From the NCBI GenBank assembly GCA_015039465.1, contig MU130695.1, forward strand, positions 159,603 to 223,602: a stretch of DNA of 64,000 nt. The letters are read 5' to 3'. The notes under the pieces are model-generated. The model was not told the origin of the DNA. It saw nothing but the letters and a program-made list of their open reading frames with translations, and searched no databases. Made by a program: the position numbers and the translations under genes. Of this stretch, positions 3,214 through 51,700 are shown in pieces. Each line of letters opens with the position of its first letter. Within the stretch, counting starts at the first letter, position 1. This DNA comes from Phlegmacium glaucopus. Its lineage: Eukaryota; Basidiomycota; Agaricomycetes; Agaricales; Cortinariaceae.

Positions 3214-4837
3214 ATGGCAGCTTCAGCTCATTGGTCTGGTGATGCCGTCATTGCTTTACTCAATTTTGTTCTCTCCAAGAAGGCCACAGCTGGTGATGGA
3301 ATGTCATTTAAAACTGTAGTTTGGAACGAGGCAGCAACCATCGTAAATCAAATACCTAGGGTCAAGGGAGGACTGAAGACATCTGGTAGCTGCAAGAATA
3401 AGTTTGCGAAGGTATTCATGTACTTTACAGTCCCCCACGTTATCCGGCCAGAGTCCAGCGGACTGCCAAAAGTCCGGTGGAAGTCTGGCGGACTCCACTG
3501 AAATTCCGGTAAAAGTCCGGTGAGAGTCCGGTGAGAGTCTGGTGAAAGTAGAAAAATGCCTGGACTGTATGTCTGGTCACAGTCCGCCGGACTTTTGATA
3601 GAATTTAGGGTTATATTTAGATTTAGAGGTTAGGCTTAGGGTTATATTTAGATTTAGGGCTTAGGATTAATATTTAGGGATGGGGATATTTTCTGTCCGC
3701 GTGGTAGCGCGTTCTTAGGTTAGGAGGGGATACAGGCATGTTTTGTACTTCCACCGGACTTCCACCGGACTCTGACCAGACTTTTCTGGAGTCCGGCAGA
3801 AGTCCAGCGGAATTCCGGCTGGACAATGTGGGGGAGTGTAAAGTCCTCAGGTATTCTTATATTTATCTTCCATGTTTAACAACTCAAAAAAAGATTTAGT
3901 TGAAGGAAACATTTCATATTGTTGCAGCTATTAAGGCTCAGTCAGGCTTCAAATGGGATGACAAAAAGGGAGCGGATATTGGCCCGGAAAGCGAGGCTGT
4001 GTGGGAGGCATATGAAAAGGTGTGTGGTATATTTTATTCTAGTTTTCGAGGATCTCAGCGCTCTCTTTTTGTTTGGCAGAAGAATAAAGGTGCTTCAGCA
4101 TTTAAAAACAAGGGATGGCCATGGTACGACAGGATGCTGCCCCTAATGCCGACTGCACCTCGGGGAGCAAATACTTATCAGCCAATATCTGGATCTCAGC
4201 TTGTACAACATTCTTAAACTGATGAAGCGGAAGAAACTCAAGAAACACAGTCTCAGCCTATTTCTAATTGGGTAAACACTTTTATTTTCATTCTATAATT
4301 CTTATGCTAATACCCTGAGAGTCTCCTTCACCACCACCAGAGGATAGAACAGCTTCCAAAGCTGCCGAAGACTTTGAAGACGAACCGAGAAAAAATCAGA
4401 AGCCTCCTGAAACGCCCAATGTCAAGACTGGAGTCAAGCGCCGACAATCAGCTCTTCAAGTTGGTGAAGCCTCATCATCAAACAAGCGTCAGCGAGGATT
4501 TGAGGCACGGCCTTCAGGCGCTCTTGCACTTCATGGAATGAGAGAGGGCCTGGAGGAATTTACGGAGGTCTTTCATGATGTGATGACAGGTAAAAAATCA
4601 AACCTTGATGCTACTCCTATTCAAAAGTCAATGGCCATGAAGTGGGCTCAAGAACTCGAGACGGATCTGAGTGATAGGTGTATTGTCGGTCTTATTGATA
4701 TGTTTCAGGCAGATGTAACGGTGGCAGATGCATATATGTCTCTCTCTCGTGAGAGCATTAGGAAGAAGTGGGTCAGTGTTTGGGTTAAAGATATTAAAGA
4801 AGAAGAGGAAAATGAGGTAGTTTCAGACAAGGAATAA
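3214..4837 (+). pseudogene. Harbinger ORF1, Myb/SANT-like DNA-binding protein, one stop codon
   Basis: This is the accessory DNA-binding protein of the Harbinger element. Exon 1 is 3214-3409 (AHWSGDAVIALLNFVLSKKA...), exon 2 is 3900-4019 (KETFHIVAAIK, GFKWDDKKG), and exon 3 starts at 4080 (KGWPWYDRMLPLMP). The last exon encodes a basic linker (GVKRRQSALQ) and a C-terminal region (QELETDLSDRCIVGLIDMFQ) that ends at 4837. The trihelix-like W..D..V..LL pattern fits Myb/SANT-like ORF1 proteins. A TAA at 4215-4217 interrupts the frame, most simply from CAA by C-to-T. The foldback element at 3418-3848 sits in the first intron and duplicated the donor site. Confidence 0.75.
3418..3848. mobile_element. 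Word-repeat foldback element (GTCCGG word), nested
   Basis: The element has termini ATGTACTTTACAGTCCCCCA and GTGGGGGAGTGTAAAGTCCT(C) and an 8-bp duplication AGGTATTC at 3410-3417 and 3849-3856. The arms are built from variants of the 10-bp word GTCCGGCGGA and its complement. The centre is a run of TTAGGG/TTAGAT-like sequence. It is closely related to the element at 42378-42860. There is no coding capacity. The duplicated octamer contains the 5' splice site of the host intron (AAG|GTATTC), so the insertion sits inside an intron and leaves two candidate donors. Confidence 0.9.
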
Positions 4838-17927: not shown

Positions 17928-18416
17928 CAATTTTATAGTGACGTGCGGGCCGGGCTTGGACTCAAGTGTTTTCTCGAACTAGGTACAGCTAGATAGAAAA
18001 ATACATAAAGTAAGAAGAGAAGGAAGCGGGAGGGTGGGTAACCGAAAAAACGGTCTCGTACTACTAGACGCTCGAGTCTACGTGACACAATGAGCAAAGA
18101 GATCACGAAACAACGAAGAAAGAGAGGAAGACCGGGTCTTACCTGGGAGAGACAGTGAGGAAAGAGATACCTGTCGAACTGGCACGGATTCGTATAAGTA
18201 ATCCCCCACTGTCTCTCCCTGTGTTCTCTTGACGTCAGTGATAGACAGTCTGAGGAGATCGATGTCTCGGTTTTTCTGTCATTGTTTGTGTACACGTGAC
18301 AGGTCATGCCGCGTACCAGAGGCCCGTTGATGTCGTTCATTGGACTTGCGTAAAGAGTATCTTTAAACCCGATCAATTTTATAGTGACGTGCGGGCCAGG
18401 CTTGGACTCAAGTGGG
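17928..18416. repeat. Pair of 43-bp direct repeats
   Basis: CAATTTTATAGTGACGTGCG... occurs at about 17931-17972 and 18374-18416 with one difference, 445 bp apart and in the same orientation. The interval also holds a small inverted pair, GGGAGAGACAGTG and CACTGTCTCTCCC, near 18148 and 18205. This may be a remnant of a short element. No coding evidence. Confidence 0.6.
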
Positions 18417-18759
18417 CTTGGGCTTTTAACGTAGTCAACCTTGTGCACCGACCAAACAACAACTCGGTGACTCAGAACACTGAATGGCCGATCTCACATC
18501 GATGCTGCTATCGATTCTAACAGCATCATCAACTGCCTGCTCTACCCTCTTGTCCCTCAAAGTCTCAATCATTCCAGACTCGAGACTTTATATGCACAGA
18601 TTCCCGTTGAGGGTCATGTCCAGTACCTGTGCCATATTCGGAGAAAGCAGAGACTTGCGAGCGTTACCTCTCCTCGTCGATGCCTTCGTCCAAGGTTCCC
18701 AAGTAGTTGAATGTGATGGTCTATCAAGCGGTCACACAAAGCTGAACTTCACGGGGGAA

Positions 18760-19790
18760 TGGCGTTGCATCTATAATCAAGTACGCTCGTTTCCCGACCC
18801 GTCAACACTAATAATAATGACTTTTCAAGAAAATTCTCTGTCCTGAATCCGTAGCAGTCTCAGTCCACCTTCGAAAATAACAGGGCCTAGTATTGATGCA
18901 CTTCCATACGTTTTTCTTCCACTTGCAGGACTCTGACGGTTTTTTCCCCATTTAAAACCAAACGTTCTCCCTGATTATAATATAGGATCAAGAAAAACTT
19001 CTCGAGCCGCTACGGTCCTTCCCTCCAACTAAGGCGCGTCAACCCGACGCTACTGTTCGCCTTGCACTCTTTTGTTACCGTGTCATATGCGTTGGGCCGT
19101 GACTACCGAGATTGTACGAGCGACTCATGAACATGAAAAAGGTAAGCAATGTTTTTTTATTTTTTTGCTGCTTTGGGCCCGTCTCGAATTAATCAGCAGC
19201 GTTGTAGATATCCGAACATACCAGTTTAACGTTTAGTACAGCTGCTACAAGGCGAAGAACCGAATTTTTTTAAAGCAGACGAAGGAATTGAAGAAAACAC
19301 AGAAGTGGACACAGATAGGCACTAGCGATAATCAGTGCAGGGCGCTGCCGACTCAGATGACGAAGACATGAGATTTGGATTTTACACAAATGATCAAATA
19401 CATTGTTCGATTGAAGCTGAGGCCAATTCTACCTTGATCAACGACTAAAACAAGAAGAATTTGATAGAAACGAACGAGGCATCGTACCTATGTTATCAGT
19501 CGAATCCTGTCCACTTCTCTGGTCGCGGTGTTGGACACTACTATGACTATGAGGCCCTGGGGTTGCTGCTATAGCCTGAGCGGCCGGCATATCAACAATG
19601 TTGCGAGAAGAAATATTCTGATACTTTAGTCCAGAAAAAATTCCTGCGTGACTTTGGTCTCGCGAATTATTTACAGCTTACCCGCGGACGGAGCTATTCT
19701 TGGATTTCCGTAATATATTTATGTGCCACATATTGGTGACAGTTACAATGTACTTTGACTGACCGTGTGTACTCAACCTTATCGTTCCCA
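18760..19790. repeat. Segmental duplication, copy 2
   Basis: Collinear with 12725-13700 (landmarks given there). Here it forms the upstream region of the GTPase gene, which begins at 19855, while copy 1 lies downstream of the membrane-protein gene at 13722-14476. The copies share short indels and many substitutions, so the event is old. Confidence 0.75.
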
Positions 19791-19854
19791 TCTATGACTG
19801 ACCGTGTGTACGTACTCAACCTTATCGTTCCCATCCACGAGAGCGTCTTTTGCA

Positions 19855-22800
19855 ATGTCTACTTCATCGAAACCCCAACTCACTGCTGAGCAGATTCGGA
19901 AACTACAAGCAAGGTTTGCTCGATTCCGTATCCTCGTGATCGGGCGAGCCAACGCAGGCAAGACAACAATCCTGCGAAGACTCTGCAACACTACGGGAGA
20001 ACCTACGATTTTTAGTCCGAATGGTCAAAAGGTGAGGCATATGGTGAAAGTTCATCCCAGATACTGATATCCATCCCATGATCTCAGATCGAGTCCTCGG
20101 CCCTTAATCCATCGGTGGGGGTAAGCAGTTCCTCTACTAGTCTTGGTTATGATGTTATGGTTCGATTACTATCCTCATACGGCAGCGTGGAGGGCATGAC
20201 ATCCGGAATGAAATGATATTTGAGAGCAACCCTGGTTTTATCTTTCATGATTCCTGTGGTTTCGAAGCTGGCGGTGCTCAGGAGCTGAAGATGGTACAGG
20301 AGTTCATTAAGGAGCGTTTGAAGGCCAAAAATGTGAAGGAGCAGCTTCATGCAATCTGGTATGTTAGTACTCGTCTTTAGAGAACAAATTTCTTAACAGA
20401 GAAAAATGTTTTGGATAGGTACTGCATTCCAACGAGTGATGACCGACCAATCACAGCAGCAGAAAGGAAGTTTTTCAATGAATGCGGGACAGGGCTTGGT
20501 ATGTGTCATCTTATCAATATATTACTGTGAAGAATAAGCTTGTGAAGTACCAGTGATTCTTTTGTGGACCAAGACTGAGTCCCTTGATGTTGCTAAAATT
20601 AGGCAACTCATGAAGGAAGGTAACAGCAGATCTGAGGCAATGCAACAAGCTCCACAAAAAGCTTGGGTTGATTATGAAAGTATTATCTATCCACTCTTTG
20701 ATAGGTTTAAATATCCACCAAAGGCATATGTTGTATTTCGAAGTAAGTGTTATACTTGTTAATGATTGTTTGGCTAATTGTGTGGTATAGAGATGCATGA
20801 GCCTGGAGCTGATTGTAAAGACTTGATTGAAAAAACAACAGCTGCACTGTCTAGTGAAGATTTACAACAGCTCTTTCTTTCAACACAGCAAAACAATATT
20901 GAGGTGTGTATTAAATATGCGGTTAGAAGGTTGGGAACCATGTTATTTTTCAATTCCTGCATTGACATAATTCTTAGACTTTTGAATGAGAAGGAATCAA
21001 CTATGTTGGAATATTTCAAGAAGGTTAAAGGAGATTGGGCATATATCATGGCAATTGTTCTGAGATATTTTCCACAAATTGTGGTATGTATTTGATAAGA
21101 CTAAAGAAGGAATTGATAGCTGATTTTGTAGAGTTATCTTGAGCATTTAGTGCTTAATGATCTAGACCAACATATATTATGACAGCAAGTGTGTAGGAAA
21201 AGAGTCATTATCATGTTATATTGCTTGTCACCTAAATTTTTTAACAGATTGTAAGTGCAAAATCATCTCCATCTGCCTTGATTCTAGCTTACTCTTTTGA
21301 CAGGAAGTAAGTGCAAGACCATCTTGATCTGCCTTGGCTCTAGCTTACTCTTTTGACAGTGGGTAAACACAGGACCATGTTGATCTGCCTTGACTCTAGC
21401 TTACTCTTTCACAGTATGTAAGTGCAAGACCATATTTGTCTGCCTTGACCTAGCTTACTCTTTTGACAGTCTGTAAGTGCAAGACCATGTTGATCTGCCT
21501 TGGTCTCCAGCTTACTCTTTTGACAGTTGGTAAGTGCAAGACCATCTTAATCTACCTTGACTCTAGCTTACTTGTTTGACAGGGAGTAAGTGCAAGACCA
21601 TGTTGATCTGCCTTGATTCTAGCATACTCTTTTGACAGGAAGTAAGTGCAAGACCATGTTGATCTGCTTTGATTCTAGTTTACTCTTTTGACAGTTGGTA
21701 AGTGCAAGACCATGTTGATCTGCCTTGACTCTAGCTTACTCTTTTGACAGAGGGTAAGTGAAAGACCATCTTGATCTGCCTTGATTCTAGCTTACTCTTT
21801 TGACAGGAAGTAAGTGCAAGACCATCTTGATCTGCCTTGATTATAGTTCACTCTTTTGACAGAAAGTAAGTGCAAGACCATGTTGATCTGCCTTGATTCT
21901 AGCTTACTCTTTTGACAGTATGTAAGTGCAAGGCCATCTTGATCTGCCTTGACTCCAGCTTACTCTTTTGACAGGGGGTAAGTGCAAGACCATCTTGATC
22001 TGCTTTAATTATAGCTTACTCTTTTGACAGTTGGTAAGTGCAAGACCATGTTGATCTGCCTTGACTCTAGCTTACTGTTTTGCTGTTTTGACAGTATGTA
22101 AGTGCAAGACCATGTTGATCTGCCTTGTCTCCAGCTTACTCTTTTGACAGTTGGTAAGTGCAAGACCATCTTGATCTGCCTTGATCTGCCTTGACTCTAG
22201 CTTACTCTTTTGACAGAGGGTAAGTCCAAGGCCATCTTGATCTGCCCTGACTCTAGCTTACTCTTTTGACAGAGGGTAAGTCCAAGGCCATCTTGATCTG
22301 CCCTGACCTCTAGCTTACTCTTTTGACAGTTGGTAAGTCCAAGGCCATCTTGATATGCCTTGACCCTAGCTTACTCTTTTGACAGGAAGTAAGTGCAAGA
22401 CCCTCTTGATCTGCCTTGACTCTAGTTTATTCTTTTGACAGGAAGTAAGTACAAGACCCTCTTGATCTGCCTTGATTATAGCTTACCCTTTTGACAGGGG
22501 GTAAGTCCAAGACCATGTTGATCTGCCTTGAATCTAGCTTACTCTTTTGACAGAGAGTAAGTCCAAGGCCATCTTGATCTGCCCTTACTCTAGCTTACTC
22601 TTTTGACAGTTTGTAAGTGCAAGGCCATCTTGATCTGCCTTGACTCTAGCTTACTCTTTTGACAGGAAGTAAGTGCAAGACCCTCTTGATGTGCCTTCAT
22701 TCTACCTTACCCTTTTGACAGGGGGTAAGTCCAAGACCATGTTGATCTGTCTTGACTCTAGCTTACTCTTTTGACAGAGGGTATGTGTGAGACTCTCTTG

Positions 22801-24541
22801 ATCTGCCTTGACTCTAGCTTACTTTACTCTTTTGACAGAAAGTAAGTGCAAGACCATCTTGATCTGCCTTGACTCTAGCTTACTCTTTTGACAGAAAGTA
22901 AGTGCAAGACCATCTTGATCTGGCTCTAGCTTACTTTTTTGACAGTTGGTAAGTGCAAGACCATTTTGATCTGCTTTGACTCTAGCTTACTCTTTTGACA
23001 GGATGTAAGTGCAAGACCATCTTGATCTGCCTTGACTCTAGCTTACTCTTTTGACAGAAAGTAAGTGCAAGACCATCTTGATCTGCCTTGATTCTAGCTT
23101 ACTCTTTTGACAGGAAGTAAGTGCAAGATCATCTTGATCTGCCTTGACTCTGGCTTACTTGTTTGACAGTTTGTAAGTGCAAGACCATGTTGCTCTGCCT
23201 TGACTGTAGCTTACTCTTTGGACAGAGGGTAAGTGAAAGACCATCTTGATCTGCCTTGACTCTAGTTCATTCTTTTGACAGAAAGTAAGTGCAAGACCCT
23301 CTTGATCTGCCTTGATTATAGCTTACTCTTTTGACAGGAAGTAAGTGCAAGACCATCTTGATCTGTCTTTGACTCTAGCTTACTCTTCTAACAGTTTGTA
23401 AGTGCAAGACTATCTTTATTTGCCTTGACTCTAACTTACTCTTTTGACAGGATGTAAGTGCAAGACCATCTTGATCTGCCTTGACTCTAGCTCACTCCTT
23501 TGACAGTCTGTAAGTGCAAGATCATCTTGATCTGCCTTGACTCTAGCTTACTCTTTGGGCAGGCTGTAAGTGAAAGGCCATCTTGATCTGCCTTGACTCT
23601 AGCTTACTCTTTTGACAGAAAGTAAGTGCAAGACCCTCTTGATCTGCTTTGACTCTAGCTTACCCTTTTCACAGGAGGTAAGTGCAAGCACAGAAGAGTC
23701 TCTATTATTCTGTCACCTTATTTTATTTTTATTTGGACAGTTTGTAGGTGGACCAATGATATCTTCACTTCTGCTTACCTGATTGACTTATCTTTTGGAC
23801 AGCATGTATGTTGACCATTTAATGTTATTTACCAATTGCTCCATGACTTACATTTCTCAATAGCATGTATATGCAATACTTTCTGATCTGTCATTTTTCT
23901 CTGCTTACCTAGTAATATCTTTGCTTATAGATGGTAAGTATCATTACTCTTTACCCTTTTTTTTAATCTCTATAATAACATATCACTTGGTGATTTTTTT
24001 CTGCCTTATTTCTATCTTTGTACTTACTTTTCATCCAGTTTTTATTAATGTCAATGTACAGGCTTCTGTCTCTAAAATTATGTTACCAACTGTGAGTGTT
24101 TGTTTGGAAGCATAGTATCTAAATTTCATCTTACAAATTCTCTTAAGCTTTCCAACCTATCTACCAAATACAACTTAAAAGAAGCCACATACTGTGCAAT
24201 TGGCATGCATCTCATTCAATCTTTTTCCATCCTCTCAATATTCACTTTTACTATTAGTTGCAGCTATTATTGGCCACTTGTCTTTCTTTCTTCATCACCA
24301 ATCGCCAAGTACCAAAAACTCTCTAGCAAGAGCTGCTGAAATGTATCAGCAATCAACTTCTGATGCCTCTGTCAAACAAGCAATTGACAAGATTTTTGAA
24401 CTTGAAAATCTTTTCATAAACATAAACAGTCATGTCAAATACCTTTTGGGTGTTGATAATGTCAATCGTAAATTACTGGTTAAGGAGGCTGTACAGACAG
24501 CATTGAATAATCTGTTGTGTATGGATTCAATTTTTATTTGA
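19855..24541 (+). CDS. P-loop GTPase interrupted by a one-codon-exon array
   Basis: Intron-rich gene for a GTPase-fold protein of a family that is multicopy in mushrooms. Exons with matching phases are 19855-20031, 20088-20120, 20186-20358, 20419-20498, 20554-20742 and 20791-21083. Motifs are the P-loop GRANAGKTT (G1), HDSCGFEAGG (G3, DxxG) and WTKTES at the G4 position. NIEVCIKYAVRR and DWAYIMAIVLRYFPQIV follow. Next come 49 three-base exons at 21186-23933 (separate entry) and a 30-nt exon 24062-24091 (ASVSKIMLPT). The C-terminal exon ends at 24541 and contains ARAAEMYQQSTSDASVKQAI and RKLLVKEAVQTALNN. The join between 24091 and that last exon is not resolved. The family role is unknown to me. 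The array would add about 49 mostly charged and aromatic residues between the G domain and the C-terminal part. Confidence 0.8.
21186..23933 (+). repeat. Tandem array of 49 near-identical introns separated by single-codon exons
   Basis: The unit is about 56 bp: a 53-nt intron (GTAAGTGCAAGACC...CTTGACTCTAGCTTACTCTTTTGACAG, with a CTTAC branch-like motif 12-13 nt before the AG) plus exactly three bases. Start and triplet of each: 21186 CAA, 21248 ATT, 21304 GAA, 21360 TGG, 21415 TAT, 21470 TCT, 21527 TTG, 21583 GGA, 21639 GAA, 21695 TTG, 21751 AGG, 21807 GAA, 21863 AAA, 21919 TAT, 21975 GGG, 22031 TTG, 22095 TAT, 22151 TTG, 22217 AGG, 22273 AGG, 22330 TTG, 22386 GAA, 22442 GAA, 22498 GGG, 22554 AGA, 22610 TTT, 22666 GAA, 22722 GGG, 22778 AGG, 22839 AAA, 22895 AAA, 22946 TTG, 23002 GAT, 23058 AAA, 23114 GAA, 23170 TTT, 23226 AGG, 23282 AAA, 23338 GAA, 23395 TTT, 23451 GAT, 23507 TCT, 23563 GCT, 23619 AAA, 23675 GAG, 23741 TTT, 23803 CAT, 23864 CAT, 23931 ATG. 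Of the 49 following donors, 43 are GTAAGT and all start GT; every acceptor is AG. No triplet is a stop. The first entry is the least certain. Confidence 0.85.
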
Positions 24542-25617
24542 TGAGCAGTACTAATTGGAAACTGTAGCAGGGAAATAAGCCATTGCATACTTAAATCATC
24601 ACACTGTTATGAATGGACCCCTATGTTTCTTTGCCTTTGCCTTTTCCATTTACTCTTCTCCAGTTATCCTTTCTTCATCATATCACCCTTCTGTATTCTC
24701 ACCCTCTTTATTGATTCACCAGTGTACTATATTTACTCCTTGCCCTTTTCCCTTTGTCCTGCCCCAACCCTTTGTGACTCATAGTATCAATATGTATGTT
24801 GAATAAACCAACTGTATGTAATATCAATTATGCCCATCATCCTCCTGTTTCCTATTTATTTTATCTCTTTGTCTCATGATCACCTTGTGTGACTGTTAAC
24901 CGTAGCTCTCCAAGAATGGAGAAGATTTCATGTACTTATACTTGATGCTTCATAGTAACACCTCAGTCTATTTTACCAAGACTGAGGTCAGTACTTATAT
25001 TACCTATCTCAACAACAAAGACTTACAAACAAGTAGTATACTATTGTTCTATAGGTACAGCTTAAACAATATTAGTCTATTTTACCAAGACTGAGTATAC
25101 TATTGTTCTATAATGTACCACAGCCTCAATGACTCACCATTGTGTATATAAGGAGCCATAACCCACAGTAGTTGTCCCTTAGTTTAGACCTTCTGTACCA
25201 CTATGGTTCTAATCTATAACTGCCTTGCTCAAACTTGCCCTTAGTCTTGTAAGGAGATAACAATAGCTTGGATATTATGGATCTTCATTACCTGGTCCAT
25301 TTTGCTCAGTACTGAACATGAGTGCAGGCTTATAGTCGCTGTAACACACACTCTATGCAAAGAACCAAAAACAGAAATATATATATCTTGTGGGCAGTGA
25401 GGAAGAGCTTGTTAGGGGACATTAACTAGAGTGAGTAGCCACTGGTTAACTTAGAGAGGATGAGGTCACCAGTAACCAAGTTTATACTAAGGTGTTGTCT
25501 ACAGACGACACCTGCTACCTTATATACAGGAGGACCTAGGTAACTACCCTGGGTCCTGATAACAATCATATAGTAAGCTATAGAAATAGAACACACGTTC
25601 CATGAGGAATGTGTGAT
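24542..25617. repeat. Solo-LTR-like repeat in otherwise non-coding DNA
   Basis: About 24893-25345 begins TGTTAACCGTAG and ends TATAGTCGCTGTAACA. It resembles 45393-45952 in several blocks (TATATAAGGAGCCATA, TTAGTTTAGACCTT, GCTTATAGTCGCTGTAACA) and so looks like a solo LTR. No flanking duplication is clear. The rest of the interval has no supported gene. Confidence 0.5.
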
Positions 25618-27465
25618 TAGTGTTTGGAAGTCCAGTTGCAGGACTGGAAAGAGACTGTAAAAATACCAGACCAGCAGTCCGGTATAAATCATTGTTTGTG
25701 TTGTTATATAACACCAACCAGAGAGCAGTGGACCAGTCTTCAGGTCAAGAGACTCCCTGTTGTTTGTTTAGGGAAGGTATAACCTTGACTTATAACATAC
25801 TTGAAAGGTGATTGAGGCACAAGAGTAAGGAAGAGGATGAGGATGAAAATGAAAGAGTCTTTTGCAAGACTATAGCAATTGACAGTAAGGGACAGTAACA
25901 GATAAAAGGTTGAAAAAGGTGAACTTGAGGGAGGAATTCACTGGAATTCCACTGAGAAGATGACTGTTGGGGAGTAAGAATGAATTGGGAGAAACTGGGG
26001 GAAACTGCCTATCCTGGTACAAAAGAGCAGTATTTATACCCTAAGGATAAGGCTATGTAGAACAATAAAAAAGAAAGAAGTACGCACTGTCAAAATGAGA
26101 ATGATGAAGAGAGGACAGCTGCAGGAAGAAAAGAACAATGGAAAAGAAGAAGGAACAATAAAAAAAATCTGTAAAGTGTCAAAGTGCGAGAGAAAAGAAG
26201 AGAAGGCAGTGTACACAGTCCAATAGCAAAAATATATCAACTCCATAGGTGTGTGGTCATGTCAAAAATGTGAAAGGTCCTGAGTCAACACTTGAAAGGT
26301 GCAGCCTTGTTCCTGAGAAAATACTACTTGCCCATGATCCCATGTCGCGCAGCCTTGATAACACTTGACACACTGCGAGAATAATCCTCTGCTGCTGATT
26401 CATCTGCAATTCCTGCTTAGTTGTGATCCTCCTGGACTTCCTAAGTTGTCATAAAGAGGGTGGGAAGGCTTCAGGTACCACGTGAATGATAAGATAAGAG
26501 GTAGATAATCGAGGATAGGGGACTGAGTGAGATCCAGGAGTGAGGTATGGCAAGATAGATAGCTGATGGGAAGACTTGTGGGTCCATAGCCACAACAACA
26601 ATGACAAAGCCTTTTACATAATGGGAGATGTAGCTGATGCATCCATAAAGGGGCTGTTCTTGAAATGATGGGCCAAAGATACGATCAAACACAAGCCGAT
26701 GATGGATGCAAATAGTAGATTGATCACTTTGTTGTATCGCTAGCCAAGGAACAAACAGATGGTAGATGTTTAGGAGCATGTCGACAGTGTAAATGATAGA
26801 TAGCATAGTGTGAGACATTGAGAATATGATGAGCGATGAGGGATGATAACATTGAATGAATGATTTGTTGACCAGGAATGCGATTCAGGGCTGCTTCCAA
26901 AATAGGTAAGTGAATTCAAAGTCCGCTTATTTTCATGATGGCAACTTTTAAGCTTTCTTCTCATGCTACCAATCAATCAGTATTGGTGCGCGATACCGGT
27001 TTTTTGGTTTTTGAGAAGCAAAGACTGGAAAAAGACCGGTATTCGGCCCTAGGACCGGTCTGAACCGGCAGTTTTGTAGCCCTTATTTTTCCCTTTAAAA
27101 CAACATAAAGACTGTATTTATTGGTCAAATATTCACTGAGAAAAAAATAAAACAGTAAAAATGTACACAAAATAGTAGGAAACAAATAATATCATCATAA
27201 AATTGACAATTACCAATGGAATTTAATGTTCTTGGGCTTATTCTAAAGGTATAGATCACATCTACATATTTGTCTGAGGTTATACATGAAAAAATGACCA
27301 GTATTTGTCAAAAGTCTGGTCCAGGACTGCAAAAAACCGATGTGGACCGGTCCCAATTGGTCCAGTCTGGTCTTTTGACCTTCTAGAAGCTTAGTGGACT
27401 GGTTGCAGTCCTGGTCCTGTCCAAAAATACCAAAAAACCAGACTGGACCGGACTTCCAAACACTA
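25618..27465. mobile_element. hAT-like non-autonomous element (GGTCCAGTC/ACCGGTC word)
   Basis: The termini are TAGTGTTTGGAAGTCC and its complement GGACTTCCAAACACTA, flanked by identical octamers TGTGTGAT (25610-25617 and 27466-27473). Near the ends are many copies of a GACCGGT/ACTGG word. There is no transposase. Eight-base duplications with short TA-starting inverted repeats fit the hAT superfamily. The termini resemble those of 34611-35177. The middle holds AT-rich non-coding DNA. Confidence 0.85.
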
Positions 27466-42377: not shown

Positions 42378-42860
42378 GTGTACTTTACAGTCCCCCACGT
42401 TGTCCAGCCGGAGTCCGCCGGACTGCCAAAAGTCCGGCGGAAGTCCGGCGGACTCCACTAAAATTCTGGTAAAATTCCAGTGAGAGTCCGGTGAGAGTCC
42501 GGTGAAAGTAGAAAAATGCCTGGACTGTATGTCTGGTCACAGTCCGGCGGACTTTTGATGGAATTTAGGGTTATATTTAGATTTAGAGGTTAGGCTTAGG
42601 GTTATATTTAGATTTAGGGCTTAGGCTTAGGGCTTAGGATTAATATTTAGGGATGGGGATATTTTCTGTCCGCGCGGTAGCGCGTTCTTAGGTTAGGAGG
42701 GTTAGGAGGGGATACAGGCATATTTTGTACTTCCACCGGACTTCCGCCGGACTTCCACCGGACTCTCACCGGACTCTGACCGGACTTTTCTGGAGTCCGC
42801 CGGACTCCGGTCAGTCCGGCGGAATTCCGGCCGGACAATGTGGGGGAGTGTAAAGACCTC
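42378..42860. mobile_element. Word-repeat foldback element (GTCCGGCGGA word)
   Basis: Sister copy of 3418-3848, with octamers GGTTTTTG (42370-42377 and 42861-42868), the same ends (GTACTTTACAGTCCCCCACG and GTGGGGGAGTGTAAAGACCT) and a TTAGGG-like centre. It is longer by extra copies of the word and of GGGCTTAGG. It split the gypsy frame between protease and reverse transcriptase. Confidence 0.93.
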
Positions 42861-48320: not shown

Positions 48321-48742
48321 TCACCCGAGAGCATAGCTCAACGTGCTTGAACCATCCGGACCAACAGGGAAATTAAAACCTTCAAGAGCCAAAGCATCAC
48401 TCGGGCAGGTACCAGAAGATCCAGCACCAACGCCGTTCCTCCCTGATCCACCAACACCACCACCATTCTCACACACTCCATCCCCAAACCACGTGTTCGA
48501 ACCATCACCAACACCCCCCTGATCAAACAAAAACATCCCACCCGACGAACTTTCTAAAGAAGTAGGCGACGACGACGGCGGACCCAGCCGCGGTGTAATA
48601 ACGCCCACATCTCGACGATGCCGATATCGATTTGAAAGATGATGATGATCGTTATCAAGATGAAGTAGAAGCTGCTGTTGTCCAAGGGTAGTAGTATCGC
48701 TATCAGCAGCGATAATAGAGGATTCAAGTGTTCCCTCCTCAC

Positions 48743-48777
<35 letters not shown>

Positions 48778-51700
48778 GGTTGACTCTTGTCATCTAGACT
48801 TGCCAAGAAAGCGTCCCAGGTTTGGTCAGTTGCTACGAACGATGACGATGACGGTTTGTGCGTGGTTCCATCACTGTCGTCATTGTTGTCGTTATTAGAC
48901 TCGGTAATATCACATTTGAATCCGTTAGGAACAATTGGCATCCGTATATCCCCGTTGGTATCACCATCATCATCAGGTAAACTCAACCTCAACCTCGACT
49001 TAGCCGCTTCTTCTTCTTCTTGTCGACCACGTCCTCGTCTAGGTTCAGGTTCTTCAATATCATCATGATCAGCAAGCATCAACCTCAACCTCGGTCTACC
49101 CCTCTTCCCACCCTCATCTTCTGAATCCTGTTCATCTTCACTCTCGCTCTCTCTCCCATCATCTAACCCTCTCTTACTCCCACTCCCACCGGTAGCAGCA
49201 GCAGTAAATCCGCCACAACCCCAAATCGCACTGCGTCTCCTATCCGCAGGTGTTCCTCTCCCAGTCATCTTCATCCCACCCATTTCAGATTGGCGGAGTA
49301 TAAATACTCGTACAGAATCCAAACGAGGGGGTGGGAGCGGTAGAATGCTAGGTGACAGCTGGATGAGTTGTTGGTGGTGGTGGTGGTAGTGTGGATGAGG
49401 GGAGGCGGGTGGAAGGTGGATTTGCATTGACGGAGTGTGGCTGTCACTGTCGTTAGTGTTGTCGTTGACAGCGGTGGTGGTGGTAGTGTGGTCCATGATG
49501 TCAGTTGGCGTTCCTTCCGAAGTTGACGTTGATGGAGACAGCGGAGTCGTAAATGAATCCGGCGGCGAAGGAACCAAAGCCGGCACTTCTTCCGCCAGCT
49601 GCTGTTCTTGTTGCATCTGCATCATCTGCATCTGCACATGTGGAGGAACAGGCGGGATATAGAAAGACGACACGAAAGATTGTGGTTCACCACCCACGAC
49701 AGCGGTAGATTTAGACTTTGACTTTAACTTGGAGGAGGCGGTAGCAGAATTGGTAGGAGAGGTAGGCGAAGTAGGCGGAGAGGAAAGTTCAGCATTGAAC
49801 GAAGGATCTTGGAACGGTTCAATGTCAATCTCCATTTCACCTTCTGCATCTGGGTCTTGATCTTGATCTTCACAGGGAGTGGTAGTAATCGATGAGGCAA
49901 CGCCTTTCTTCTTCCCATTGCTAGATATATCGGTCTGATCTCCTTCAACTTCCTCAACTGCGTCGTCATAGCCATCGTCGTAATCTTCCTCATCATATAA
50001 ATCCTCATCTTCGTCTTCATCATCATCCTCCTCTTCATAATTCTCGAACCCAAACTCATCATCTTCAAACCCTTCATACCTCCACTCATCCTCCATCGTC
50101 CTCAATCCACCAGTACCAACACCACCTACTAGCCCATCCATATCGTCATCATCATCCACCAATTCAAACGAATACGTCTCCTCATTCATAAATTCATCAT
50201 CTCTATGTGACGGCGGTGGGGTCATCACCATCGATGAACCTGACGATGATGCAGAATCCGAATTCGAAGTCGAATAAGCAACCAAATTTGAATCTGAACT
50301 GGCGCCCGCTCCTTCCTCCATCTTCCGCCCATCCCTCCTCCACCACCGCTTCCTACCTCTAACAGGAATTAAACCATATCCAATCGGAAACCCATGAACA
50401 GAGTAATAATCATGTGCTTCTTGAGCTACCACTGTACGGATAGTGTCTGGTGTATAACGTTTTGTACTGTCAAGTGGATTTGATTAATATTGACAACGAA
50501 ACAAAAAAAAGGAACCAACTCACATCTCCCATACACGGATCTTACATGCTACTTTCCATAAACTTCTTTCTTTATCGATTTTAGGAGTCCATTCTGGGGT
50601 TTGATAGTTCTGGTATTCAATTTTCTTTTGGTATTGCCTAGATGAGCAAGGGGCCGAAGGTTGAGATTGGATTTGTGGGAGTGCTGCGAGTTGAGGAGAT
50701 GAAGCTTGTTGTTGAGGAGACGGAAGTTGGGGTGCAGGTCCAAGCAGAGACGAATGATCTTGCTCTTGCTCCAGCTCCTGCGGTTGAGCAAGACGCAACT
50801 CATCTCCTTGAATTTGATCTCCAAAAGACAGTACTGGAACCGAAAGCCCAATGTCCATCCCTTGCTCCATCCCCAGCTGTGACTGCTGCTGGTGGTGTTC
50901 GTCTGCCATATTCATATCTACCGGATCCCACTCTTTCATCCTATTCTCACGCTCATCCACCATCATCGCCGGCGGCAAAGACGGCAGCTGCTGCGGTGCA
51001 GGAGGAAAACAAACAACCTTCAAAGGCGATGAATAAGTAGGTGAGGTGGGGTTTGGATACATCGGTGAGGTAGGTACCGAAGTGGGATATGTCGGTGACA
51101 ATGAAGAGTTGGATGTGGGTTGAGATATTTCAGAAATGCAAATTGATATCGCTGGTCTTGTAGGTATCGTCGAAGGGGTAGTAGATACACATGATTGTGA
51201 GTGTAGGGATGAAGATGGACGATCTAGAGAATGAGAATGAGATGACAATGATATATCCGACGGGGATGTGATAGTCGTGGTCTCATTCGTGGTTGACCCA
51301 CTAGGGGCTAGAAGAGGTCGTTCGCCATTTATAAGCACTGCTTCTTCCCTCTCTGTCACATTTCTTTTGCCTTCCTCTCCCTGTCCTTCCTCTCCACTAA
51401 ACTCCTCTTGGGGCTGAAACCCAAACCCTAGCTCGCTCTCTGAAGGTGCCAACGTCGTTGACATACTGCCGGTGGACATTGACAGATTTAACGGCATGGA
51501 AAGGGACATGCTCAAAGGCATATTCAAAAATGACATATTCAGAGGCATTGAGAGAGACGTAGGATTTGAGAGAGGTACGTTCAAAAAGGACATGGGCAAC
51601 GAGGACATCGACATAGATAAAGGCATAGATAGAGGATTCGACATGTGTGATGAAGAGGCGACAGTGGTGGAGGTTGAAGGTTGCGCATCGTTAGTGATGG

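What the first reader, a model, noticed from the sequence alone, without database searches (positions are those of the whole stretch)
21186..23933. An array of 49 one-codon exons separated by near-identical introns inside a GTPase gene
Every unit of this 2.7-kb tandem repeat is GT..AG delimited and leaves exactly three bases between the AG of one unit and the GT of the next. The preceding exon (ending 21083) closes in phase 0, and the next ordinary exon (24062-24091) can be read in phase 0, so the triplets would be successive codons. None of the 49 is a stop. The decoded segment is dominated by Glu, Lys, Arg, Leu, Phe and Tyr. Repeats inside introns are common, but a repeat whose unit is itself a complete intron plus one codon is not something I know described. 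It would let a protein segment grow, shrink or change one residue at a time by unit duplication.
Basis: partly seen in the sequence, partly recalled or inferred. Interest (0 to 1): 0.97.

Follow-up and report, generated by a model that had tools for sequence, protein, structure and literature searches.

The report
Genes with exons of one codon
In the mushroom Phlegmacium glaucopus, dozens of related GTPase genes carry long stretches in which near-identical introns of about 53 bases stand between single codons; these codons are likely spliced together, one amino acid per exon, into a highly variable piece of protein, a gene layout for which we found no earlier report.

Summary
The same 56-bp unit (53-nt GT-AG intron plus 3 nt) fills arrays at the same place in dozens of paralogous GTPase genes. 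In 36 arrays parsed with exon length free, 1229 of 1242 exons are exactly 3 nt; 2 of these 1229 triplets are stops, about 119 expected (115 +/- 8 in within-locus shuffles). Each array encodes a different peptide; introns are alike. A short JGI contig from a relative, apparently spliced, runs through a 41-residue segment ending E-H-H-D into the conserved C-terminus; in paralog L040 those residues are four separate 3-nt exons. A GenBank model of this species strings twenty such triplets together. So the triplets are very probably translated. No transcript of this locus was seen. Literature searches found nothing like it.

The parts
19855..20031 (+). predicted exon 1 of the GTPase, G1 motif GRANAGKTT
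   Evidence: GenBank relatives P0002-P0004
20088..20120 (+). predicted exon 2
   Evidence: matches P0002 only in part
20186..20358 (+). predicted exon 3, G3 region HDSCGFEAGG
   Evidence: (paralog exons 81-93% identical, no stop in the matched stretch)
20419..20498 (+). predicted exon 4
20548..20742 (+). predicted exon 5, G4 region LWTKTES
20791..20929 (+). predicted exon 6 (exon A)
   Evidence: P0001, P0002 skip it; paralog hits split there
20978..21083 (+). predicted exon 7 (exon B), ends in phase 0 at ..YFPQIV
21084..21185 (+). first intron before the array, GTATGT..ACAG
21186..23933 (+). array of 49 one-codon exons (QIEWYSLGELREKYGLYLRRLEEGRFEGRKKLDKEFRKEFDSAKEFHHM) separated by 48 introns
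21251..23688 (+). part of the array with introns of the 53-nt consensus GTAAGTGCAAGACCATCTTGATCTGCCTTGACTCTAGCTTACTCTTTTGACAG
23741..23933 (+). four terminal one-codon exons TTT, CAT, CAT, ATG with non-consensus introns shared with paralogs
23934..24061 (+). intron after the array
24062..24091 (+). predicted exon C1, ASVSKIMLPT, phase 0
24148..24202 (+). predicted exon C2, LSNLSTKYNLKEATYCAI; the following intron starts GC
24258..24541 (+). predicted last exon C3, (V)AAIIGHLSFFL.., stop TGA 24539-24541

Best explanation
The 2.7-kb repeat is a stretch of a GTPase gene in which each ~53-nt repeat has the form of a complete spliceosomal intron and each 3-nt remainder is very likely a codon, so that the introns would be removed one by one and the codons joined into a variable peptide of 49 residues between the GTPase part and a conserved C-terminal part. 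Shown by the sequence and calls: the GT-AG frames, the 3-nt spacing, the lack of stops, the same architecture in 36 arrays (the window's included) with different codon strings, the open flanking exons. Inferred: that the spliceosome uses each intron separately, by intron definition (GTAAGT donor in most units, short intron, a CTTAC box before the AG that looks like a fungal branch site, a motif I recall), so that no long exon is needed. Inferred: inclusion may be incomplete, since each exon is one codon and any subset keeps the frame. Inferred: the peptide is a hypervariable recognition or interaction surface; its codon string is unrelated between paralogs while the ends tend to be shared (I or V among the first two read codons in 28 of 36 arrays; Y/H-rich or E-H-H-D/T ends). 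Evolution: the introns look like copies of one master (star phylogeny), spread or homogenised independently of the codons they separate; how the codons are diverse from the start is the open question.
For: (1) Stops: 2 of 1229 triplets (both TAG), expected 118.7 under column independence; within-locus shuffles 115.1 +/- 7.8, none of 2000 as low; counting each distinct triplet once per locus, 2 against 35.7 +/- 4.6, lowest of 2000 = 21. TA[AG] 2 vs TAT 83 where other NA[AG] vs NAT is 212 vs 202 (p 1.7e-20); TGA 0 vs TGG 42 where other NGA vs NGG is 78 vs 83 (p 8e-11). GAG 115, AAG 27, CAG 9 are used, so an extra AG is not what excludes TAG. One of the two stops lies in L044, whose C-terminal exon also has a stop. 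(2) Exon length: 1229 of 1242 free-length exons are 3 nt; blind mid-intron profile 1109 of 1137; a second parse, which presumes 3-nt exons, gives 1328 units in 36 loci with the same two stops. (3) Position contrast: adjacent units differ at 14% of intron sites but 51-66% of triplet sites (812 units with 53-nt introns). (4) The matched stretches of the flanking exons hold no stop in any locus where found, except L044. (5) P0013 (JGI, 295 aa on a 1373-nt contig) runs without interruption through four places where P. glaucopus has ordinary introns and through the array position; its segment ends E-H-H-D and then aligns with the decoded tail of L040, where E, H, H, D are four 3-nt exons, gap-free over 49 columns; 7 of 400,000 shuffles of the segment end EHHD. 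It begins Y-V, as does L035. (6) GenBank model P0001 of this species joins K-I-E-E-E-E-K-Y-D-W-E-Y-S-L-R-E-Y-Y-Q-V, twenty of L009's one-codon exons in order, leaving out D, R, E and F; the first three of these stand before irregular donors GTAGTA, GTAACT, GCAAGT.
Against: No RNA of this locus, or with certainty of this species, was available. P0013 comes from an unnamed source; that it is RNA of a related species is my inference from the missing introns, and its segment could lie in an ordinary exon there. P0001 is a fusion of two neighbouring genes (L009 and L024) and may be pure gene prediction; at L024 it skips the whole array. P0005 (JGI) and P0002 (GenBank) end in ..VVCV / ..VVCI, as if the first array intron were retained. 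13 of 1242 exons are not 3 nt (1, 2, 4 nt once each; 6 nt four times; 9 nt six times, some of these look like misparses) and two arrays hold a TAG. The parser's weights were trained on units with 3-nt spacing. Some units have lost a splice site (for example one in L020). Third-codon C is absent (0 of 1229), but CpG loss before GT can explain that (CpG observed/expected 0.017 in the arrays), so I do not count it. Invariance of the AG and the first G is imposed by the parser; one search is the fair test. Three-nt exons are hard for the spliceosome, and a row of about 50 is without precedent in what I saw.
Confidence: 0.84

Rival explanations
1. Non-coding minisatellite: the whole interval 21084-24061 is removed as one long intron, and the GT..AG look of the units is left over from a duplicated intron.
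For: Both sides are phase 0, so skipping everything is also productive; P0001 skips the whole array at its L024 part; period and copy number are those of a minisatellite.
Against: Stops are avoided at these triplets; the 3-nt spacing is kept in 1109 of 1137 pairs although introns vary in length; the three triplet bases are the most variable of the unit, not expected of a neutral repeat; P0013 carries the terminal residues.
Confidence: 0.07
2. Combinatorial array (not exclusive of the best explanation): the triplets are exons but each transcript includes only some of them, so one gene yields a crowd of peptides, as proposed for schistosome micro-exon genes.
For: Any subset keeps the frame; donors vary (GTAAGT 967 of 1229, others GTGAGT 55, GTATGT 38, GCAAGT 16 and more); P0001 leaves out four of L009's codons, three of them before irregular donors.
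Against: No transcript set shows it; P0001 may be a prediction; GTAAGT in most units speaks for steady use.
Confidence: 0.3
3. Introner-like origin (a question of origin, not exclusive either): the 53-nt intron is a mobile or RNA-copied element that has been inserted or rewritten again and again between codons; the codon strings are older than the introns now standing between them.
For: Star phylogeny (mean pairwise difference between loci 8.46 in a random sample of pairs, sum of distances to consensus 9.25); 41 exact-consensus introns in 17 loci with 37 different codon contexts; codon diversity does not grow clearly with intron age (rho 0.28, p 0.11, 33 loci); in L010 five consecutive unit pairs have identical introns and codons CFFLR vs LEFED.
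Against: The 26 array places that I grouped from the listed part all lie beside the GTPase family, whereas introners insert in many genes (PMC9860276, passages); exact one-codon spacing needs a rule that known introners lack; adjacent codons are only slightly more often equal than in shuffles (147 of 1161 vs 114 +/- 9), so a 3-bp target duplication is not the simple answer; paralogs do not share codon strings away from the ends, which old codons would; L010 and L011, among the youngest arrays, contain runs of N.
Confidence: 0.45
4. Assembly artefact: near-identical units were collapsed or shuffled by the assembler.
For: L010, L011 and L023 contain N runs; repeats of 56 bp are hard for short reads.
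Against: Artefacts would not avoid stops in 36 arrays; the window array has no N; most introns carry private changes (mean 4.6 from consensus).
Confidence: 0.03

Closest known systems
Schistosome micro-exon genes (MEGs)
   Same: many very small symmetrical exons in one gene, alternative splicing giving proteins that differ by a few residues (PMC4350168, passages)
   Different: here every exon of the stretch is a single codon, introns are near-identical copies, and only one segment of a GTPase is built this way
Aphid bicycle genes
   Same: gene family recognised by its many small exons, rapid divergence (PMC9168663, passages)
   Different: internal exons there are of phase 2, here phase 0 and one codon; no repeat of intron plus codon mentioned in the passages
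Introners / introner-like elements
   Same: many near-identical introns of one family in a genome; fungal ones are reported without TSD or TIR and have been read as RNA-propagated (PMC9860276, passages)
   Different: here found, as far as listed, beside one gene family only, in rows with exactly 3 nt between copies
Single very small exons (1 nt in Arabidopsis APC11 and Fusarium CYP621A; 3 nt elsewhere)
   Same: show that exons of 1 to 3 nt can be spliced; intron definition with stepwise removal proposed (PMC4674806 passages; PMC12940212 passages)
   Different: isolated exons, not arrays of tens
MHC intron homogenisation with diverse exons (recalled, not looked up)
   Same: introns homogenised while coding sites stay diverse
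   Different: ordinary exons, between alleles

Membership tests
Micro-exon genes | small exons whose length is a multiple of 3 | tested here: met
   1239 of 1242 array exons are 3, 6 or 9 nt
Micro-exon genes | most of the coding region lies in micro-exons | tested here: not met
   49 of 472 predicted residues of the window gene
Introners | near-identical intron copies | tested here: met
   1162 matches in the genome, star phylogeny
Introners | copies in many unrelated genes | tested here: inconclusive
   26 of 26 places grouped by eye from the rows that one search lists lie beside hits, but only about 150 of 1162 matches are listed
Introners | target site duplication (present in part of the known families) | tested here: inconclusive
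   adjacent triplets equal in 147 of 1161, shuffles 114 +/- 9
Non-coding minisatellite | no constraint on codon content of the unit | tested here: not met
   2 stops in 1229 triplets
Recursive splicing sites (zero-nt exons) | AG directly followed by GT | tested here: not met
   lengths 0-30 were allowed and no zero-length exon was returned
Agaricomycete P-loop GTPases (MMR_HSR1-like) | G1, G3, G4 motifs and homology | tested here: met
   369 homologs at E <= 0.001; P0003 above the Pfam cut-off of MMR_HSR1. The shorter window query without exon 1 gave no Pfam hit above cut-off
Spliced one-codon exons | transcript of the same locus | not testable with these tools
   no RNA data of this species held

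The most novel reading that the evidence does not exclude
A diversity system at the resolution of one amino acid: a fungal GTPase family keeps well over a thousand one-codon exons, each between interchangeable introns, so that recombination in the introns and choice of splice sites can reorder, add or drop single residues without ever breaking the frame, giving each paralog its own recognition peptide.
Probability: 0.4. Interest if true: 0.98.

Novelty: categorically new. Interest (0 to 1): 0.95.

Why it matters
If transcripts confirm it, these are protein segments with one intron per amino acid, an extreme that tests how short an exon the spliceosome can serve and in what order it works. It would also be a case in which introns homogenise while the codons between them stay diverse, bearing on where introns come from. 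Public gene models stop at or skip such segments in the cases seen (P0002, P0001 at L024), so similar genes may be hidden in other fungal genomes.

Tried and rejected
Simple tandem duplication of intron plus codon: rejected as the main process, although true copies exist (same-locus pairs sharing 5 or 6 derived intron changes share a flanking codon in 50-75% of 43 pairs; L021 and L031 share their last units). Fast point mutation under selection in the codons: hard to square with L010, where introns are identical and codons differ. Absence of C at the third base as a splicing signal: dropped because CpG loss can explain it. Codon strings shared between paralogs away from the ends: none beyond chance (best score 10, shuffled best 12, 528 pairs). 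Association of shared intron variants with the neighbouring codon between loci: none clear. More sequences that reach the C-terminus: the P0013 region gave P0013 and two others that read like unspliced DNA; the P0024 region gave only itself. Amino-acid make-up of six JGI segments against the decoded arrays: r 0.64 only. Rfam on 18000-26000: nothing. Fold search with the model of P0024 (mean pLDDT 78.5; blocks of residues 301-370 between 42 and 66): hits to dynamin-like GTPases, G-alpha and GM4951 with TM 0.31 or less on the query in the 50 rows shown, not used. Dropped before counts: L001-L008 and L045-L046 (returned by searches, overlapping other loci), L023 (array runs into N). Loci analysed: 36, of about 44 places with a C-terminal exon hit.
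Full report
What was claimed and what is there. Searches confirm this: 49 triplets from 21186 to 23933, no stop. Seven upstream exons, the triplets and three downstream exons form one open frame of 301 + 49 + 122 codons, and the upstream part is homologous to fungal P-loop GTPases. The flanking ordinary exons meet the array in phase 0 on both sides.

Organism. The closest named protein hits are from Phlegmacium glaucopus, on contigs of 459859 and 880866 bases among others, the lengths of contigs C8 and C62 of the window's assembly; it is an agaric of the Cortinariaceae.

One case of many. The 56-bp unit has 1162 matches in the assembly. I grouped the roughly 150 listed rows into 26 places by eye; each lies beside a hit of the upstream or C-terminal exon of the same GTPase family. 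I fetched 36 further loci; of these and the window, 36 arrays could be read (L023 runs into N). They hold 8 to 97 triplets each, 1328 in all by the second parse.

Test of translation. The parser used splice-site weights, allowed exons of 0 to 30 nt and did not look at codon content. It returned 1229 exons of 3 nt, 1 of 1, 1 of 2, 1 of 4, 4 of 6 and 6 of 9 nt; its weights were trained on units with 3-nt spacing. Intron lengths are not confined to one frame (918, 193, 186 by remainder 2, 0, 1). A profile of the intron middle alone finds 1137 neighbouring pairs, 1109 with YAG-NNN-G[TC]. Among the 1229 triplets TAT occurs 83 times, TGG 42, GAG 115, but TAA 0, TGA 0, TAG 2. Shuffling bases within each locus gives 115 +/- 8 stops; counting each triplet type once per locus gives 36 +/- 5; none of 2000 shuffles of either kind came near 2. 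One TAG is in L044, whose last exon also has a stop; the other is in L021, whose matched exon stretches are open. This is the mark of selection on translated codons.

Test of splicing. Donors are GTAAGT in 967 of 1229. The breaks of a first simple parse that I looked at were mostly GTAACT or GCAAGT donors with the 3-nt exon intact; a few were other changed donors, and one unit in L020 had lost its AG and codon. The last three units before the ATG have other introns, shared by 19 loci (mean pairwise divergence 14-21%), with exons of 3 nt except for two of 19 loci that have 6 nt at the first of them. The absence of C as third base can follow from CpG loss: observed/expected CpG is 0.017 in the arrays.

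Transcript-like evidence. P0013 is a 295-residue reading frame on a 1373-nt JGI contig. It runs without interruption from the G4 region through exons A and B, a 41-residue segment rich in E, W, K and M, and exons C1 to C3, a stretch that takes about 4 kb in the window. In L040 the last codons of the array are GAA, CAT, CAT, GAT (E, H, H, D), then AGG, each flanked by AG and GT, then C1. P0013 reads E-H-H-D-L and aligns with the decoded L040 tail without a gap over 49 columns. 7 of 400,000 shuffles of its segment end EHHD. I infer that P0013 is from RNA of a related species; the database does not say so. P0024, P0030 and P0071 are further JGI reading frames with a variable segment in the same place and the conserved C-terminal helix after it. 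Of the 14 JGI proteins read, these four reach the C-terminal part; P0007, P0008 and P0017 enter a variable segment but not the C-terminal part; the other seven end without a recognisable C-terminal part, P0005 in the manner of a retained first array intron.

A public model. P0001, a GenBank protein of this species, matches exons of L009 exactly (residues 1-49) and of L024 exactly (73-343, apart from residue 137, whose codon is split by an intron); between them stand residues that spell twenty of L009's one-codon exons in order, without D, R, E and F. It is a fused model and may be a prediction, but it shows that the annotation of this species accepted such exons.

How the arrays evolve. Neighbouring units differ at 14% of intron positions and 51-66% of triplet positions. 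Pairs with identical introns from different loci share the codon in 7.6% of 896 cases; the background is about 6%. Within a locus the figure is 24% of 109 pairs, so some copies do carry their codon along. The introns form a near-star around one consensus; some loci are young (L010: 0.36 changes per intron), some old (L033: 8.05), yet codon diversity is similar. So introns are largely spread or homogenised independently of codons. Introner-like copying, or rewriting of introns with spliced intron as template, would fit; I cannot decide between them, and L010 and L011, among the youngest, contain assembly gaps.

What it may do. The segment lies between a GTPase domain with a helical extension and a conserved C-terminal helical part; in the model of P0024 it is mostly of low confidence. 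Its codon string shares nothing beyond chance between paralogs away from the ends. A recognition or interaction surface is a guess from this pattern.

Known things. Isolated exons of 1 to 3 nt, micro-exon genes, bicycle genes and introners are known (listings or passages only, no paper read whole). Searches for one-codon or three-nucleotide exon arrays found no report; the library holds open-licence papers only.

Verdict. What is missing is RNA from this species.

Noticed in passing
arrays in 36 loci, window 21084-23933: CpG is almost absent in the arrays (observed/expected 0.017; 0.00 in the window array, 0.15 in its C-terminal part, 0.55 in the upstream GTPase part), as in heavily methylated repeats (recalled).
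   Followed up: partly
L009 and L024 (contig C237): GenBank model P0001 fuses two neighbouring genes and strings one-codon exons of the first between exons of the two.
   Followed up: yes
L044 (contig C8): Array gene with a TAG triplet and a stop in the last exon, a likely dying copy.
   Followed up: partly
L016 and L020, terminal units: Terminal exons of 6 nt (TGC TAT; TAC TCT) in place of the usual single codon, in frame.
   Followed up: no
window 3605-3669 and 42565-42632: Nearly the same 31-bp unit TTAGGGTTATATTTAGATTTAGAG.. repeated about twice at two distant places, each near ACTTCCACCGG repeats, perhaps two copies of one mobile element.
   Followed up: no
window about 495-850: Long inverted repeat seen by eye, like a small foldback element.
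   Followed up: no
window 48321-50432, minus strand: Open reading frame of 703 codons, not examined.
   Followed up: no
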